From the NCBI GenBank assembly GCA_031763025.1, contig JASSKH010000009.1:9841922-9905921 (forward strand): DNA of 64,000 nt, read 5' to 3'. The notes below the pieces were generated by a model. It did not search any database and had not been told where the DNA came from. It saw only the letters and a list, made by a program, of their open reading frames with translations. The stretch's first letter is position 1, and each line of letters starts with the position of its first letter. Position numbers and translations under genes: made by a program. Shown here in pieces: positions 5,529 through 63,712 of this stretch. The stretch is from Macrocystis pyrifera. Taxonomy: Eukaryota > Sar > Phaeophyceae > Laminariales > Laminariaceae.

Positions 5529-5596
5529 GGGGGGGGGGGAGGGGGGGGGTGTACTCATTATCATGCATGGCCGTAGTCGTATCGTATGACCATAGG
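5529..5596 (-). mobile_element. Poly(C)-tailed B element, 3' end fragment
   Basis: Poly(G) followed by TGTACTCATTATCATGCATGG and 'CCGTAGTCGTAT...GACCATAG'. Read on the minus strand this is the B tail ending ..ATGAGTAC(C)n. Confidence 0.75.
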
Positions 5597-5629
5597 AGGG
5601 TTCCTACTTGTATTGGAGCACCAAGGGGG

Positions 5630-5768
5630 AAGTACTCATGTCACGCACGGTCGTAGTCATATGGCCATAGGTCCTCGCACTCCCACAATGCCGGGACGGA
5701 GCACGTCCGGTTTTCACCGACCAGGCAAACATCGCTTGCACCGAGCACGAAGCGCCGCGAGGTGTTCG
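5630..5768 (-). mobile_element. Poly(C)-tailed B element, near full length
   Basis: On the minus strand: GCGCTTCGTGCTCGGTGCAA head, 'CCTGGTCGGTGAAAACC', 'GACGTGCTCCGTCCCGGCAT', 'GGCCATATGACTACGACC', then ATGAGTACTT and a short C tract. About 140 bp, no ORF. Confidence 0.75.
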
Positions 5769-5771
5769 AGA

Positions 5772-5865
5772 GTTGGCGCGCGGGGGGGGGGGGGGTACTC
5801 ATTACCGTGCATGGCCGTAGTCGTATAACCATAGAGGGAGAGGGGGGGGGGGGGGGGGGGGGGGG
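5772..5865 (-). mobile_element. B-element tail between two poly(G) tracts
   Basis: Poly(G), GTACTCATTACCGTGCATGG, 'CCGTAGTCGTATAACCATAG', then a second poly(G) tract. On the minus strand it is a truncated tail inserted in an older C tract. Confidence 0.75.
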
Positions 5866-6304
5866 TAATCAGAGCTGGTCCACTACTTGTAGCCCAGCCC
5901 AGCGCTTCAAATACATCAGCAAAGAGAAGATAATAAGTAAATCCAAAAGCCAATACGTTTTCAGACTTTAAAGTCGCCCCTCGCAAGCGAGCTTCCCCGA
6001 CCGACCACGACAACACAACACATGTGCCGTTTTTTTTTTTTCCTCGGTCCCCCCCCCCCCCCCCCCCCCCCTCCCTCTCTTCGCTGCCGCGTATTTTTAC
6101 GAAAAAAAAAACAACGCCTCCTCTCCCCTACCCCCTACCCCCCCCCCCCTACCCCCCCCCCCCCTACCCGCCCCCAACCCCGTCAAAAGCCAATACCCCT
6201 TTTCCTCTCGAACTGTCGCATCAAAAACACAACAAGGGACAACCAACCAACACTCGTGCAGGAGGCGCAAGCAGCCGGCGGTCCCGAAAGGCGTTCGGGA
6301 AGAG

Positions 6305-6369
6305 GGGGGGCGGGGGGATTCTGGGGGCGGGGGGGTACTCATGGCATGCATAGCCTGGGGGGGGGGATA
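6305..6369 (-). mobile_element. Degenerate B-element tail
   Basis: Poly(G) runs around GTACTCATGGCATGCATAG; only the last ~20 bases of the tail remain. Confidence 0.5.
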
Positions 6370-6667
6370 CGCACGCAAGCTCAACAAAACACGCAATGTC
6401 AACCCCCGAAAAAACAAAAACTATTTACAACCTGGACAATTCAGAATCAAAAACGTTTGGGCAGAAAAATTCAATACCAACCCTCTCTTTCTCCCCCCCC
6501 CCCCCCTTCCCCCCTCAACCTTCCTCATCATATGCAAACCCTCCTTGTCATACGTAACTCCCACTGCTTCTCAAGCGTGTCTTCGTCCTCCTCCTCCCCT
6601 TTTTCGTTCGTCTCCAAGCGCCCAAACGGCGCGTGGTCTAATGGACACCGGCGAAAGCCTGAAGCCG

Positions 6668-6967
6668 CCCCCCCCCCCCCCCCCCCCCCCCCCCCCCCCC
6701 CCCCCCCCCCCCCCCCCGGTCTCGAAAGGGATGCGTAGTCAATGGCCAAATGACTAAGGCAAGCAACAAGTGAGTACGCCCCCCCCCCCCCCCCCCCCCC
6801 CCCCCCCCCCCCACCCCCCCCCCCCCCCCCCCCACCCCCCCCCCCCCCCCCCCCCCCCCCCACCCCCCCCCCCCCCCCCCCCCCCGCCCCCCTCCCCCCC
6901 CCCCCCCCCGAGCCCCCCGCCCTACCCCCCCCCCCCCCCCCCCCCCCCCCCCCCCCCCCCCCCCCCC
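6668..6967 (+). mobile_element. LINE 3' tail between two long poly(C) tracts
   Basis: Poly(C) (6,668-6,717), then 62 bases of LINE tail starting TCTCGAAAGGGATGCG and ending CAAGTGAGTACG, then about 188 bases of C with a few A/G/T. A heavily 5'-truncated copy sitting inside or next to a C tract. Confidence 0.8.
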
Positions 6968-7091
6968 TTTCCCGCCCCGAGAGTAGCCACAAGGTGCCGA
7001 CGAAATCCGCCTCACAAGCGGTCCTTACCACAAAGGCAGGATGCAGCACTCACTCTTGATACGACTGGCAAAGACACCTCACGGGCGCTTT

Positions 7092-61450: not shown

Positions 61451-61455
61451 GGAAG

Positions 61456-62368
61456 GGGGGGGGGGGGGGGGGGGGGGGGGGGGGGGGGGGGGGGGGGGGG
61501 GGCGTACTCATTTGTTGCTTGCCTTAGTCATTCGACCATTGACCACGCATCCCTTTCGAGACGGAGCACCGTTCCTACTCCTACAGCAGTAGTAGAGACA
61601 CCTCCAACAAATGGGCGCTCATTACGTTGTTTCCATGTATTACATAGAAACTTTTTGCTAATCTTATCCCCTTCCTGTTTGGCCTACTGTGGCCACCATC
61701 TATCTCCTAGGATAGCGATCGTTTTCTCGCTGCTATATTCATTGTATCAAACTCCTCCATGTCACATTCGTCTATTTTCCTCATCTCCTCTTCTAACACA
61801 TCCCGTTCCTCCTTGTATATTTCACATTTTCCTACTATGTGAGTTCTACTCTCTATTGCTTTGCCACACGGGCACATCTGTGCGTCTACTTCCTCCTCCT
61901 CCCGGCTACTGGTGTACCTCTTTCTTCTTTCTGGCAGGTCCAGGTCCCCTACACGAAAGCGCAGTTTCAGCGTTTTCGCGAAGTCCATTGGGCCCTGCAA
62001 ATACGTTTTCATTCCTATTCCTTCCCTCAATCCCCCGTATATATCTAAGTGTTTTTCCGATTCCACCTTGTTTCTTAGCGCTAGCCTTTCCCTTCTTTCT
62101 ATCCTTTCTTCTACTTCTGCCTTGTACCTCCCAAACTTCCCGGCGGACATAATCTCTTCTTGGTTTCCCCCTAGATCTTTCCATACTTTCTCAACTACGC
62201 CATCCCACCTTATTCCAGCTCGCCCTTGTGTTACTTTCTCCCATATAGCTCTATCAACTATGGCTGGCAACCTCTTTTTTGGCATGTTCCTTACTGTATA
62301 TTGCCAGTTCAACTTTCTTATGTCTCTATTTGTCTTGAGTGGGTGCATTCCCAGTTCTGCTCTTAATA
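61456..62368 (-). mobile_element. LINE (non-LTR retrotransposon) 3' part with poly(C) tail
   Basis: On the minus strand it starts TTAAGAGCAGAACTGGGAATG, carries the ORF C-terminal region, then a 3' UTR (GCGCCCATTTGTTGGAGG, 'CTCGAAAGGGATGCGTGG', CAACAAATGAGTACG) and about 47 C. No reverse transcriptase catalytic region, so it is 5'-truncated. Confidence 0.85.
61707..62365 (-). CDS. LINE ORF C-terminal fragment with Cys/His motif
   Basis: Open frame of about 220 codons: RAELGMHPLKTNRDIRKL, then WQYTVRNMPKKRLPAIVD, LKLRFRVGDLDLPERRKRY and CPCGKAIESRTHIVGKCEIY. The pattern C-x-C...ES..H....C..Y after a basic region is the usual end of non-LTR ORF2 proteins, downstream of the reverse transcriptase. 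The upstream part of the frame (62,369-62,498) is B-element and poly(G) sequence and is not part of the protein. The fragment cannot be active alone. Confidence 0.75.
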
Positions 62369-62520
62369 GGGGGGGGGGGGGGGGGGTGAACCTCATGTCG
62401 CCCATGGCCGTAGTTGCATGACCGTAGACCCTCGCATCCCTGTCGGGGACGAAGCACGTCGGGTTTACACCCTCCAGGCAGACGTTTCTTGCTTGCACAA
62501 AGCGCGAAGCGAAACATGAA
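62369..62520 (-). mobile_element. B element, near full length, joined to the LINE by a C tract
   Basis: Minus strand: GCTTCGCGCTTTGTGCAAGC, 'GTCTGCCTGGAGGGTGTAAA', CCCGACGTGCTTCGTCCCC, 'GGATGCGAGGGTCTACGGTC', GGGCGACATGAGGTTCACC, then ~18 C running into the LINE start. Confidence 0.78.
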
Positions 62521-62529
62521 GCGTTTCAC

Positions 62530-63290
62530 TACTCGCGTTGAGGACTGCACCCTACTAAGAACCACTAGTGAGGCGGACTTTTTTGTATTGGGTGACAGCG
62601 GCGAGTTGCTTTATTTTTTTCTGGTTTGGCCACTTCCAAGGGGGTGACAGTGGTGGGTGTCCCGATCAGCCCCGACGTCCACGCGCAAACAAACGCGGAG
62701 CAGTGGCAGTGGTGACGGATGGAAGGCGCCGATATGACATGCTACGTCGCCTGGCAGGAGACCCCGCTACCTCGAGCCGGGTCACGGACACGGCCACGTA
62801 TCATACGTCTCTCGAAAAATCCGGCAGGGGGCCGGCAATGGGGCGCAGCGGGGTGGGCGAACGAACACATGTTGTCGAGCTACCGGGAGCGGCGAAGGCG
62901 CGAGCAAGCGCTTCTTCGAAAAGGAGTGTCCGGGCGATCGCCTGGCGATATGGCCTTGCCAGCGGGCCCAGCCGCGACGACTGGGTACGAGGGCAAGAGA
63001 GGGCTCTCGGGTTACCGTTGGCGGAAGCGAGAAGGAGTGTCCGCCATAAATTGCGTCGCAGTGTTTCGGGATTTCACCGGAGGTTCCGGCGGGCCTCTCA
63101 GGCCCTTTAGGGGACCGAGCGAGGAGGATGCTTCGTACCTGAATCAGAAAATTTTACCGTACACCGCCCTGAGCGATTATTAAAAACCGCTTGGTCTTCA
63201 TATTGCGGTCTAAACGCTCCTTATGTTTCCAACCAGAGTGGTAACACGCAAGACAACACACACCCGGAGACGAGTTTCCGAACAGGTTTT
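62530..63290. other. GC-rich unassigned sequence
   Basis: Two overlapping plus-strand frames (62,568-63,110 and 62,719-63,183) are both long, with no motif, so neither is called. The composition differs from the flanking repeats and could be exon-like. Confidence 0.35.
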
Positions 63291-63297
63291 CTCCTCA

Positions 63298-63391
63298 AAC
63301 CTTTTAGGACTGCAGCCCCGTTTTGGGGTGTAAACCACTCAAAACCCAAGTATTTTGTCCCCCAAAACAGGACTGCAGTCCTAAAAGCGTT
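63298..63391. repeat. Palindromic repeat H, cleanest copy
   Basis: AACCTTTTAGGACTGCAG, 'CCCCGTTTTGGGG' on the left; CCCCCAAAACAGGACTGCAG, 'TCCTAAAAGCGTT' on the right: arms of ~38 bp around a short A/T loop. Confidence 0.8.
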
Positions 63392-63659
63392 GGCAAGGAA
63401 ACCACACGCAACCAGAATGATGGTGGCTTCGGAAATATCTCGTCGGGACCTTCTTTCCATAGACGTGTATCGCTGAGCGTTTACATTCTCCCCGTTTGTC
63501 GAGAAAAATCAGTTTTGCATTGATTCAGACGGGGGTGTGTTACCTTATCACCCGTTTGATAGGGTAGCCGGCTCGAAAGAAGTCTGGGGGATATTCATTT
63601 CACACGGGAGCAGTTCCGAGGGAAGAGATGGCCGACATCGTCCCCGAATATTTCCTCAA

Positions 63660-63712
63660 GTGGGATTCTTGGAGGAAAGGGAAGCAACAAATGAGTACGC
63701 CCCCACCCCCCA
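63660..63712 (+). mobile_element. LINE tail end fragment
   Basis: GGGAAGCAACAAATGAGTACG followed by CCCCCACCCCCCACCCC; only the last ~25 bases of the tail are clear. Confidence 0.6.

What the first reader, a model, noticed from the sequence alone, without database searches (positions are those of the whole stretch)
5529..63712. Two non-LTR retroelement families share a 3' end, ATGAGTAC followed by a long poly(C) tail
Seen: most of the long C/G tracts here sit exactly 3' of ATGAGTAC(G/C). Two families end this way: the LINE (tail core GGTCAAATGACTAAGGCAAG) and the short B element (GGTCATACGACTACGGCCAT). Their last ~70 bases align almost throughout (GTGCTCCGTC..., GGGATGCG, GGTCA.A..GACTA..GC, ATGAGTAC). 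Known: SINEs often carry the 3' end of the LINE that copies them, and LINE/SINE tails are usually poly(A), (T)AAA or other short repeats. Inference: B is copied by the LINE, and this lineage uses a poly(C) end in place of poly(A). B could instead be the truncated end of a sister LINE.
Basis: partly seen in the sequence, partly recalled or inferred. Interest (0 to 1): 0.82.

Follow-up and report, generated by a model that had tools for sequence, protein, structure and literature searches.

The report
Kelp retrotransposons that target poly(C) tracts
A mobile element and its short non-coding partner, in what is probably the giant kelp genome, appear to insert themselves into long runs of C, so the C run looks like their landing site and not just a tail like the poly(A) of other elements.

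Summary
The tail is real: ATGAGTACG plus seven C occurs 3,779 times in the 537-Mb genome, the reversed pattern twice. Of 2,900 exact LINE tails, 2,300 are followed by one base and five C. LINE and B share a homologous 3' end. The assembly fits giant kelp. But the reading needs correcting: the C run lies on both sides. C>=6 lies within 20 nt 5' of 41 of 59 copies (background 1.85%), G>=6 of none. Several target-site duplications contain the C run plus the unique bases after it, e.g. C14-GAGGTGAT before and C16-GAGGTGAT after. So LINE and B most likely insert into existing C tracts, often those behind earlier copies, in one orientation. The LINE has an RT, a weak APE-endonuclease match and almost no 3' UTR: its stop codon lies inside ATGAGTAC. 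Full-length B is about 510 nt, with no frame over 56 codons from an ATG. Most sampled C tracts have no tail, as expected of targets. Ectocarpus has a related LINE. My searches listed no report of poly(C) targeting.

The parts
61504..62368 (-). 5'-truncated LINE copy (RT C-terminal region, tail ATGAGTAC at 61504-61511)
   Evidence: 94% identical to the LINE in L046; frame 61707-62525; 150 of 8,489 genome candidates scored, all matching
61455..61502 (-). C48 tract 3' of that LINE
62369..62386 (-). C18 tract 5' of that LINE; also the C run of the upstream B copy (the likely target)
62380..62638 (-). B copy whose C run lies directly 5' of the LINE
44595..45457 (+). 5'-truncated LINE copy behind a B tail and C15
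44531..44592 (+). B fragment with C run, between two LINE copies
44283..44526 (+). LINE 3' copy and C21 run
6668..6967 (+). C50 - 59-nt LINE 3' end (6719-6777) - long C-rich array: C on both sides
35667..35926 (-). two short LINE 3' copies (35828-35892, 35699-35802) with C tracts before, between and after
21919..22111 (+). diverged LINE 3' copy (72%), no C>=7 within 30 nt 5' of it
63677..63711 (+). 35-nt LINE tail fragment with short C runs
5529..5865 (-). two to three B copies in series with C tracts before, between and after
6329..6366 (-). possible B tail fragment (by eye) between C10 and C7
25205..25312 (-). B 3' end between C22 and C39; flanks share TCTAGCGA near the C runs (target-site duplication)
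27024..27173 (-). two B 3' copies in series behind C17
20097..20178 (-). B 3' end with C16/C24 run
14744..15064 (+). C26/C124 tract followed directly by a B copy (14893-15048) and C13
7003..7242 (+). diverged B copy with C17 run
17602..17938 (+). two B copies; the second with C12/C79 run
28491..28620 (+). C20 tract then a B copy; its tail is not followed by a C>=5 run within 7 nt
34340..34364 (+). B-like tail core, five or fewer mismatches, tail ATGAATACACC

Best explanation
LINE and B form an autonomous LINE and SINE-like pair that integrates by target-primed reverse transcription into pre-existing (dC)n tracts, in one orientation (C on the element's sense strand). Shown here: C tracts on both sides of most copies, orientation bias, duplications that span the C run and the bases after it in several copies, a shared 3' end, an RT and a weak APE-type endonuclease match, and a stop codon inside the terminal motif. 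Inferred: the LINE protein recognises the 3' end shared by both RNAs; its endonuclease nicks the G strand inside the tract; the exposed G-ended primer anneals to the RNA's terminal C run and may slip, changing tract length; the other strand is cut a few to about 10 nt beyond the tract, so the duplication carries Cn plus those bases. Because every such insertion leaves a C tract on each side, each copy makes new landing sites for the next one, which would explain the nested LINE-in-B and B-in-LINE arrays.
For: C>=6 within 20 nt upstream of 41 of 59 copies (18 of 23 at >=90% identity) against 1.85% background; G 0, T 0, A 1 of 59 (41 of 63 if the 4 dropped rows are kept). Duplications: L045 C14-GAGGTGAT / C16-GAGGTGAT (16 counts the last C of the tail), where the 5' tract is a B's C run; L042 TGGTCG, L043 TGCACT; L005 GTCTTTCCTGT, L044 AATTCC, window 25245 TCTAGCGA, L053 GCTAACTCCGT with mismatches; L059 TCCCCGCGG, L065 ACGCCT. 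Identical bases after the 5' and 3' C runs for >=6 nt: 5 of 44 against 0.27 for shuffled pairs, no shuffle of 1000 reaching 5, and 2 of 19 against 0. Tolerant score mean 4.27 against 3.56, no shuffle of 1000 reaching it. 819 reverse-strand matches of C7 within 20 nt upstream of the LINE 3' block GTCTCGAAAGGGATGCG, reversed control 0 (the forward count 5,038 is inflated because each offset in a run is counted). RT domain E 8.7e-28.
Against: 18 of 59 copies lack a C>=6 run within 20 nt; of 9 B copies that reach within 20 nt of the B head, 4 lack it. A clear duplication is seen in a minority; many tests are impossible because the duplication may be only C. Other cut-offs and tests are weaker: >=8 matching bases 1 of 44, reached by 157 of 1000 shuffles; >=3 bases 3 of 19 against 3.0; score >=5 in 5 of 26, reached by 19 of 1000 shuffles; common substrings with >=6 non-C letters 9 of 60 against mean 3.8, maximum 9. 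The longest LINE copy (L046) has no C run over 6 in the 2,850 nt fetched upstream of its coding region; its true 5' end is not defined. Its own endonuclease match is weak (PF22669 E 0.004, PF14529 E 0.05), though some longer relatives carry PF14529/PF03372. The 3' tract is not systematically longer than the 5' one (20 longer, 16 shorter of 38, p 0.62), so an RNA C tail has no direct support. The planned G7 control search did not complete. No empty allele was seen.
Confidence: 0.78

Rival explanations
1. Tail-only model: the RNA ends in a long poly(C) that replaces poly(A); insertion sites are otherwise unselected, as in L1 but with A changed to C.
For: 79% of exact LINE tails are followed by C. 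In several young copies the 3' tract is much longer than the 5' one (L044 52 vs 9, L039 79 vs 11, window LINE 48 vs 18).
Against: C tracts also precede most copies and lie inside several duplications. Across 38 copies the 3' tract is not longer than the 5' one overall.
Confidence: 0.1
2. Target-only model: the RNA has no C tail; the C run comes wholly from the C-tract target and its duplication.
For: 5' and 3' tracts are similar in length overall; most sampled C tracts have no element beside them.
Against: Without any tail or slippage the 3' tract should not exceed the 5' tract at birth; 20 of 38 do, though later tract expansion could cause this.
Confidence: 0.25
3. The flanking C runs arise from tandem duplication or unequal crossing-over of [tail + Cn] units, not from repeated insertion.
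For: Copies often lie in series (window 5529-5865, 27024-27173, 35667-35926).
Against: Elements in series often differ in family, length, divergence and truncation point. Single copies sit in unlike flanks with their own duplications (L005, L044, L059).
Confidence: 0.05
4. The 5' C run is non-templated addition by the RT at the end of the cDNA.
For: RTs are known to add bases at the 5' junction (recalled).
Against: Added C on the cDNA would read G on the sense strand; G>=6 is seen upstream of 0 of 59 copies. Several C runs are followed by bases shared with the 3' flank.
Confidence: 0.02
5. B is the truncated end of a sister LINE and not a separate element.
For: The last 120 nt align to the LINE.
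Against: B reaches 507-519 nt with no match to this LINE upstream of the shared end and no ATG frame over 56 codons; three copies start with similar AT-rich heads at a C tract (L002, L018, L046). A distant LINE family with such a 3' part was not searched for.
Confidence: 0.05

Closest known systems
RTE-X LINEs and the ~600-bp non-autonomous RTEX-N1 of Ectocarpus (PMC12477816)
   Same: Brown alga; abundant autonomous LINEs and a non-autonomous element that keeps their 3' end, with 5' part of unknown origin. The kelp RT has Ectocarpus relatives, the best at 58% identity (P0121), with a related C-terminus (NAPSSRGRVVNGLTAK against [17 protein letters not shown]).
   Different: The passages and the section part that I read mention no poly(C) tail or C-tract target. 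I could not compare with their consensus sequences, so identity with RTEX-1/2/N1 is not tested.
RTE-clade LINEs with simple-repeat 3' ends in Lepidoptera (PMC2887409)
   Same: Endonuclease plus RT, extremely short 3' UTR made of a simple repeat, many 5'-truncated copies that look like microsatellite families (abstract, sections 5 and 10).
   Different: There the repeat lies between the duplications, so it is element-derived, and insertion is described as not sequence-specific. Here the C tract is inside the duplication in the copies where this can be seen.
Bov-B LINE and Sauria SINE insertion signature (PMC13295347)
   Same: LINE and SINE share a 3' end; the first base of the duplication matches the repeated base of the 3' repeat, which the authors tie to nicking and priming (passages). 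The kelp pair looks like an extreme case.
   Different: A short degenerate Tn-TA signature, not a homopolymer of many bases.
Microsatellite- or telomere-targeting LINEs: Dong (TAA)n and TRAS (TTAGG)n (PMC2887409 section 10), Togen (TG)n (PMC4640811)
   Same: LINEs whose target is a simple repeat.
   Different: No homopolymer target is named in the parts read. PMC13295347 states that among APE-type LINEs only the Tx1 and R1 clades contain site-specific elements.
Zepp of Chlorella (recalled; search listing only)
   Same: Nested insertion of a LINE into the tails of earlier copies.
   Different: Poly(A), clustered at chromosome ends or centromeres; not compared here.

Membership tests
APE-type non-LTR retrotransposon (LINE) | reverse transcriptase domain of RVT_1 type | tested here: met
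   E 8.7e-28 for L046, 3.9e-21 for L045
APE-type non-LTR retrotransposon (LINE) | APE-like endonuclease upstream of the RT | tested here: inconclusive
   L046 piece: PF22669 E 0.004 and PF14529 E 0.05, below cut-offs; some long relatives carry PF14529/PF03372, including P0141 and P0181 of Ectocarpus
RTE / RTE-X clade | RT phylogeny places it in the clade | not tested
   no named clade references at hand; Ectocarpus relatives only
RTE / RTE-X clade | very short 3' UTR ending in a simple repeat | tested here: met
   L046 frame ends ...VNGQMTKVSNK; its stop TGA lies in ATGAGTAC, followed by GTAC and the C run
microsatellite-specific LINE | copies sit in the repeat, one orientation | tested here: met
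   C>=6 within 20 nt 5' in 41 of 59, G 0 of 59; 3' C>=7 in 46 of 56, G>=7 0 of 56
microsatellite-specific LINE | repeat present before insertion (empty site) | tested here: inconclusive
   inferred from duplications that include the C run; no empty allele seen
SINE (for B) | 3' end shared with a LINE | tested here: met
   score 68 against shuffle maximum 37
SINE (for B) | head derived from tRNA, 5S or 7SL with Pol III promoter | tested here: not met
   ARAGORN found no tRNA, Rfam nothing above gathering scores; a promoter was not looked for; B is called SINE-like only
L1-type poly(A) element | A-run target | tested here: not met
   A>=6 within 20 nt 5' in 1 of 59

The most novel reading that the evidence does not exclude
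An APE-type LINE lineage of brown algae has evolved homopolymer-specific integration: its endonuclease recognises (dG)n:(dC)n, its RNA ends at the stop codon of its own RT in a motif that pairs into the tract through terminal C, and each insertion duplicates its own target. LINE and SINE thus spread by making landing sites and help keep a genome rich in long C tracts (82,393 tracts of at least 15 C here).
Probability: 0.5. Interest if true: 0.78.

Novelty: new variant of a known kind. Interest (0 to 1): 0.63.

Why it matters
Site-specific LINEs are of interest for safe-harbour insertion. Homopolymer (dC)n specificity in an APE-type LINE would be a new target class and would give a clean test of how RNA tail, primer and endonuclease choice are coupled. 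It also offers an explanation for part of the very long C tracts in this genome, and warns that repeat annotation may count the target as a tail.

Tried and rejected
Rfam and tRNA scans for an origin of B: no match above threshold (one search lists four matches far below their gathering scores). Covariation of the shared hairpin TGGTC...GACTA: not above shuffles (B 150 of 175 cells, reached by 56 of 1000 shuffles; LINE 146 of 160, reached by 374 of 1000), so an RNA hairpin is not claimed. A free common-substring test for duplications was not specific enough. Relatives in the bacterial and archaeal genome collection: 10 pattern hits, none confirmed. 5' end of the long copy L046: not found in 2 kb more. 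Literature searches answered. Searches found no paper; most other lists were capped (for instance 10 of 950). No title or abstract start listed names a LINE with a poly(C) target, but only open papers were searched and I read only the parts named.

Selection told: L009-L016 (chosen for C tracts), L008 (duplicate of L001) and L037 (part of the window) were left out of the flank counts. Of 73 copies, 10 at sequence edges were set aside and 4 more as chain breaks or fragments (none of the 4 has C>=6 within 20 nt). L001-L008 were picked by tail plus C7, so the 3' flank of that copy is biased. L038-L044 are the best RT matches, and L045 and L046 were chosen for long frames. The 20 sample pieces are at round positions on five contigs, not a random draw. 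The 19 short loci were picked for a C run 5', so they test duplications only.
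Full report
WHERE. The window lies in a genome of 537,376,219 bases in 223 contigs. The giant kelp Macrocystis pyrifera assembly is given as 537 Mb, 223 contigs, 50.37% GC (PMC10498591, passages); base counts in my 200-kb sample give 50.3% G+C. I take the host to be this kelp; that is an inference from these numbers.

OBSERVATION. ATGAGTAC occurs 15 times in the window against 1.23 expected. 14 of the 15 lie in LINE or B copies found by alignment, the one at 6335 resembles a B tail by eye, and 13 have a C>=5 run starting within 7 nt. 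Genome-wide, ATGAGTACGCCCCCCC occurs 3,779 times, the reversed pattern twice. The exact LINE tail occurs 2,900 times, 2,300 times with one base and C5 behind it. So the association is real. It is not true that most C tracts have the tail. The genome has 82,393 tracts of C>=15, of which only a sample could be examined: in 20 pieces of 10 kb at round positions on five contigs 11 of 52 runs >=10 follow a tail, 5 precede an element and 37 do neither (1 in both groups); in the window 15, 11 and 38 of 61 (3 in both).

THE LINE. The window copy at 61504-62368 (-) encodes the C-terminal part of an RT frame. The genome search scored 150 of 8,489 first-look candidates, all 150 matching. Longer natural copies (L045, L046) give RVT_1 at E 3.9e-21 and 8.7e-28, with a weak APE-type endonuclease match upstream in L046. 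L046 is broken into several frames and L045 is 5'-truncated; both are described as found. In L046 the last frame ends ...[22 protein letters not shown] and its stop TGA is the TGA of ATGAGTAC. Related proteins end alike: P0122 ...[23 protein letters not shown]0123 ...NNNAPSLRGRVVNGLTAKACKT, P0121 of Ectocarpus (58% identity) ...NNAPSSRGRVVNGLTAK.

THE B ELEMENT. Copies in the window are truncated. Elsewhere B runs 507 nt (L002) or 519 nt (L018) and starts directly after a C tract; the head of another follows the C run of L046. Of 9 copies that reach within 20 nt of the B head, 5 have C>=6 within 20 nt upstream. B gave no tRNA and nothing above threshold in Rfam and has no ATG frame over 56 codons. 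Its last 120 nt align to the LINE tail with score 68 against a shuffle maximum of 37.

THE POINT THAT CHANGES THE READING. C tracts stand on both sides. Of 73 copies found in the window, the sample pieces and the fetched loci, 10 touch a sequence edge and 4 were dropped as chain breaks or fragments. Of the remaining 59, 41 have C>=6 within 20 nt upstream, 1 has A, none G or T; background is 1.85% for C. Among copies >=90% identical it is 18 of 23. Downstream, C>=7 is near 46 of 56 tails and G>=7 near none. Where bases other than C lie between the upstream C run and the element, they recur in several copies after the downstream C run: L045 C14-GAGGTGAT before, C16-GAGGTGAT after (the 16 include the last C of GTAC); L042 TGGTCG, L043 TGCACT; L005 GTCTTTCCTGT, L044 AATTCC, window 25245 TCTAGCGA; L059 TCCCCGCGG. 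Matches of >=6 nt right after both C runs: 5 of 44 against 0.27 by shuffling, none of 1000 shuffles reaching 5; in a second set 2 of 19 against 0.0. At other cut-offs the picture is weaker: >=8 nt 1 of 44, reached by 157 of 1000 shuffles; >=3 nt 3 of 19 against 3.0. A tolerant score gives mean 4.27 against 3.56, above all 1000 shuffles, but its count of high scores alone (5 of 26) is reached by 19 of 1000; a free substring test is weaker still. In the clear cases the duplication includes the C tract, so the tract was there before. In L045 the tract is the C run of a B copy; in L042 the site appears to be a C run in front of a truncated B.

SCALE. C7 within 20 nt upstream of the LINE 3' block GTCTCGAAAGGGATGCG gives 819 reverse-strand matches; the listed reverse matches appear once per place, whereas the forward count of 5,038 counts every offset in a run; the reversed control is 0. 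Most of the listed places differ in spacer and start point, so they look like separate insertions; two on contig C26 are alike. The matching G7 control and the total count of the block could not be run, so no fraction is given.

MECHANISM. Shown: orientation, both-sided tracts, duplications with Cn in several copies, shared 3' end, RT and weak endonuclease match. Inferred: G-strand nick inside the tract, G-ended primer pairing with terminal C of the RNA, second cut a few bases beyond the tract. The 3' tract is longer than the 5' in 20 and shorter in 16 of 38, so I cannot separate an RNA C tail from a wholly target-derived run. Against the model stand the 18 of 59 copies without a C run and the long copy L046, with no C run over 6 in 2,850 nt upstream of its coding region (its 5' end is not defined). 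Each insertion leaves C on both sides and so provides new targets; this fits the series at 5529-5865, 27024-27173, 35667-35926 and 44283-45473.

COMPARISON. RTE LINEs of Lepidoptera have the same near-absent 3' UTR followed by a simple repeat, but there the repeat lies between the duplications, and those authors use this criterion to tell element-borne repeats from repeat targets such as those of Dong and TRAS (PMC2887409, abstract and sections 5 and 10). By that criterion the kelp pair belongs on the repeat-target side. Bov-B and its SINE show the first base of the duplication matching the 3' repeat, and the same paper says that among APE-type LINEs only Tx1 and R1 hold site-specific members (PMC13295347, passages). 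Clade membership is therefore not tested.

VERDICT. New variant of a known kind.

Noticed in passing
L006, L025, L028, L034, L042, L043, window 6719 and 35828: Many LINE copies are only about 55-80 nt long, starting at or near GTGCTCCGTCTCG; a strong RT stop or a separate short unit could cause this.
   Followed up: partly
L005, L006, L018, L036: A B subfamily ends in a doubled tail, such as ...GAGATCGAGTACATCTTTCCTATCGAGTACAC, before its C run.
   Followed up: no
window 80-301, 1585-1971, 13893-14196, 18606-24359, 29289-30296, 39075-41591, 48185-48302, 59897-60014: A ~115-nt repeat in both orientations with GGGGGACCATAGTAAATAGGACC at one end and its complement at the other, listed as families of 8-17 members (D12, D14, D16, D18, D19); looks like a miniature inverted-repeat transposon.
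   Followed up: no
window 10056-10748 (-): Exon with the end of a kinesin motor domain (PF00225, E 1.9e-10).
   Followed up: no
window 52160-54499 (-): Kelch-repeat protein frame (PF24681, E 2.9e-23) with long glutamine-rich repeats.
   Followed up: no
window 14771-14894: An uninterrupted run of 124 C; such runs are hard to sequence, so tract lengths may be inexact.
   Followed up: no
P0001: An 87%-identical RT protein is filed under a bacterial bin (Parasphingorhabdus sp.), probably algal DNA in that bin.
   Followed up: no
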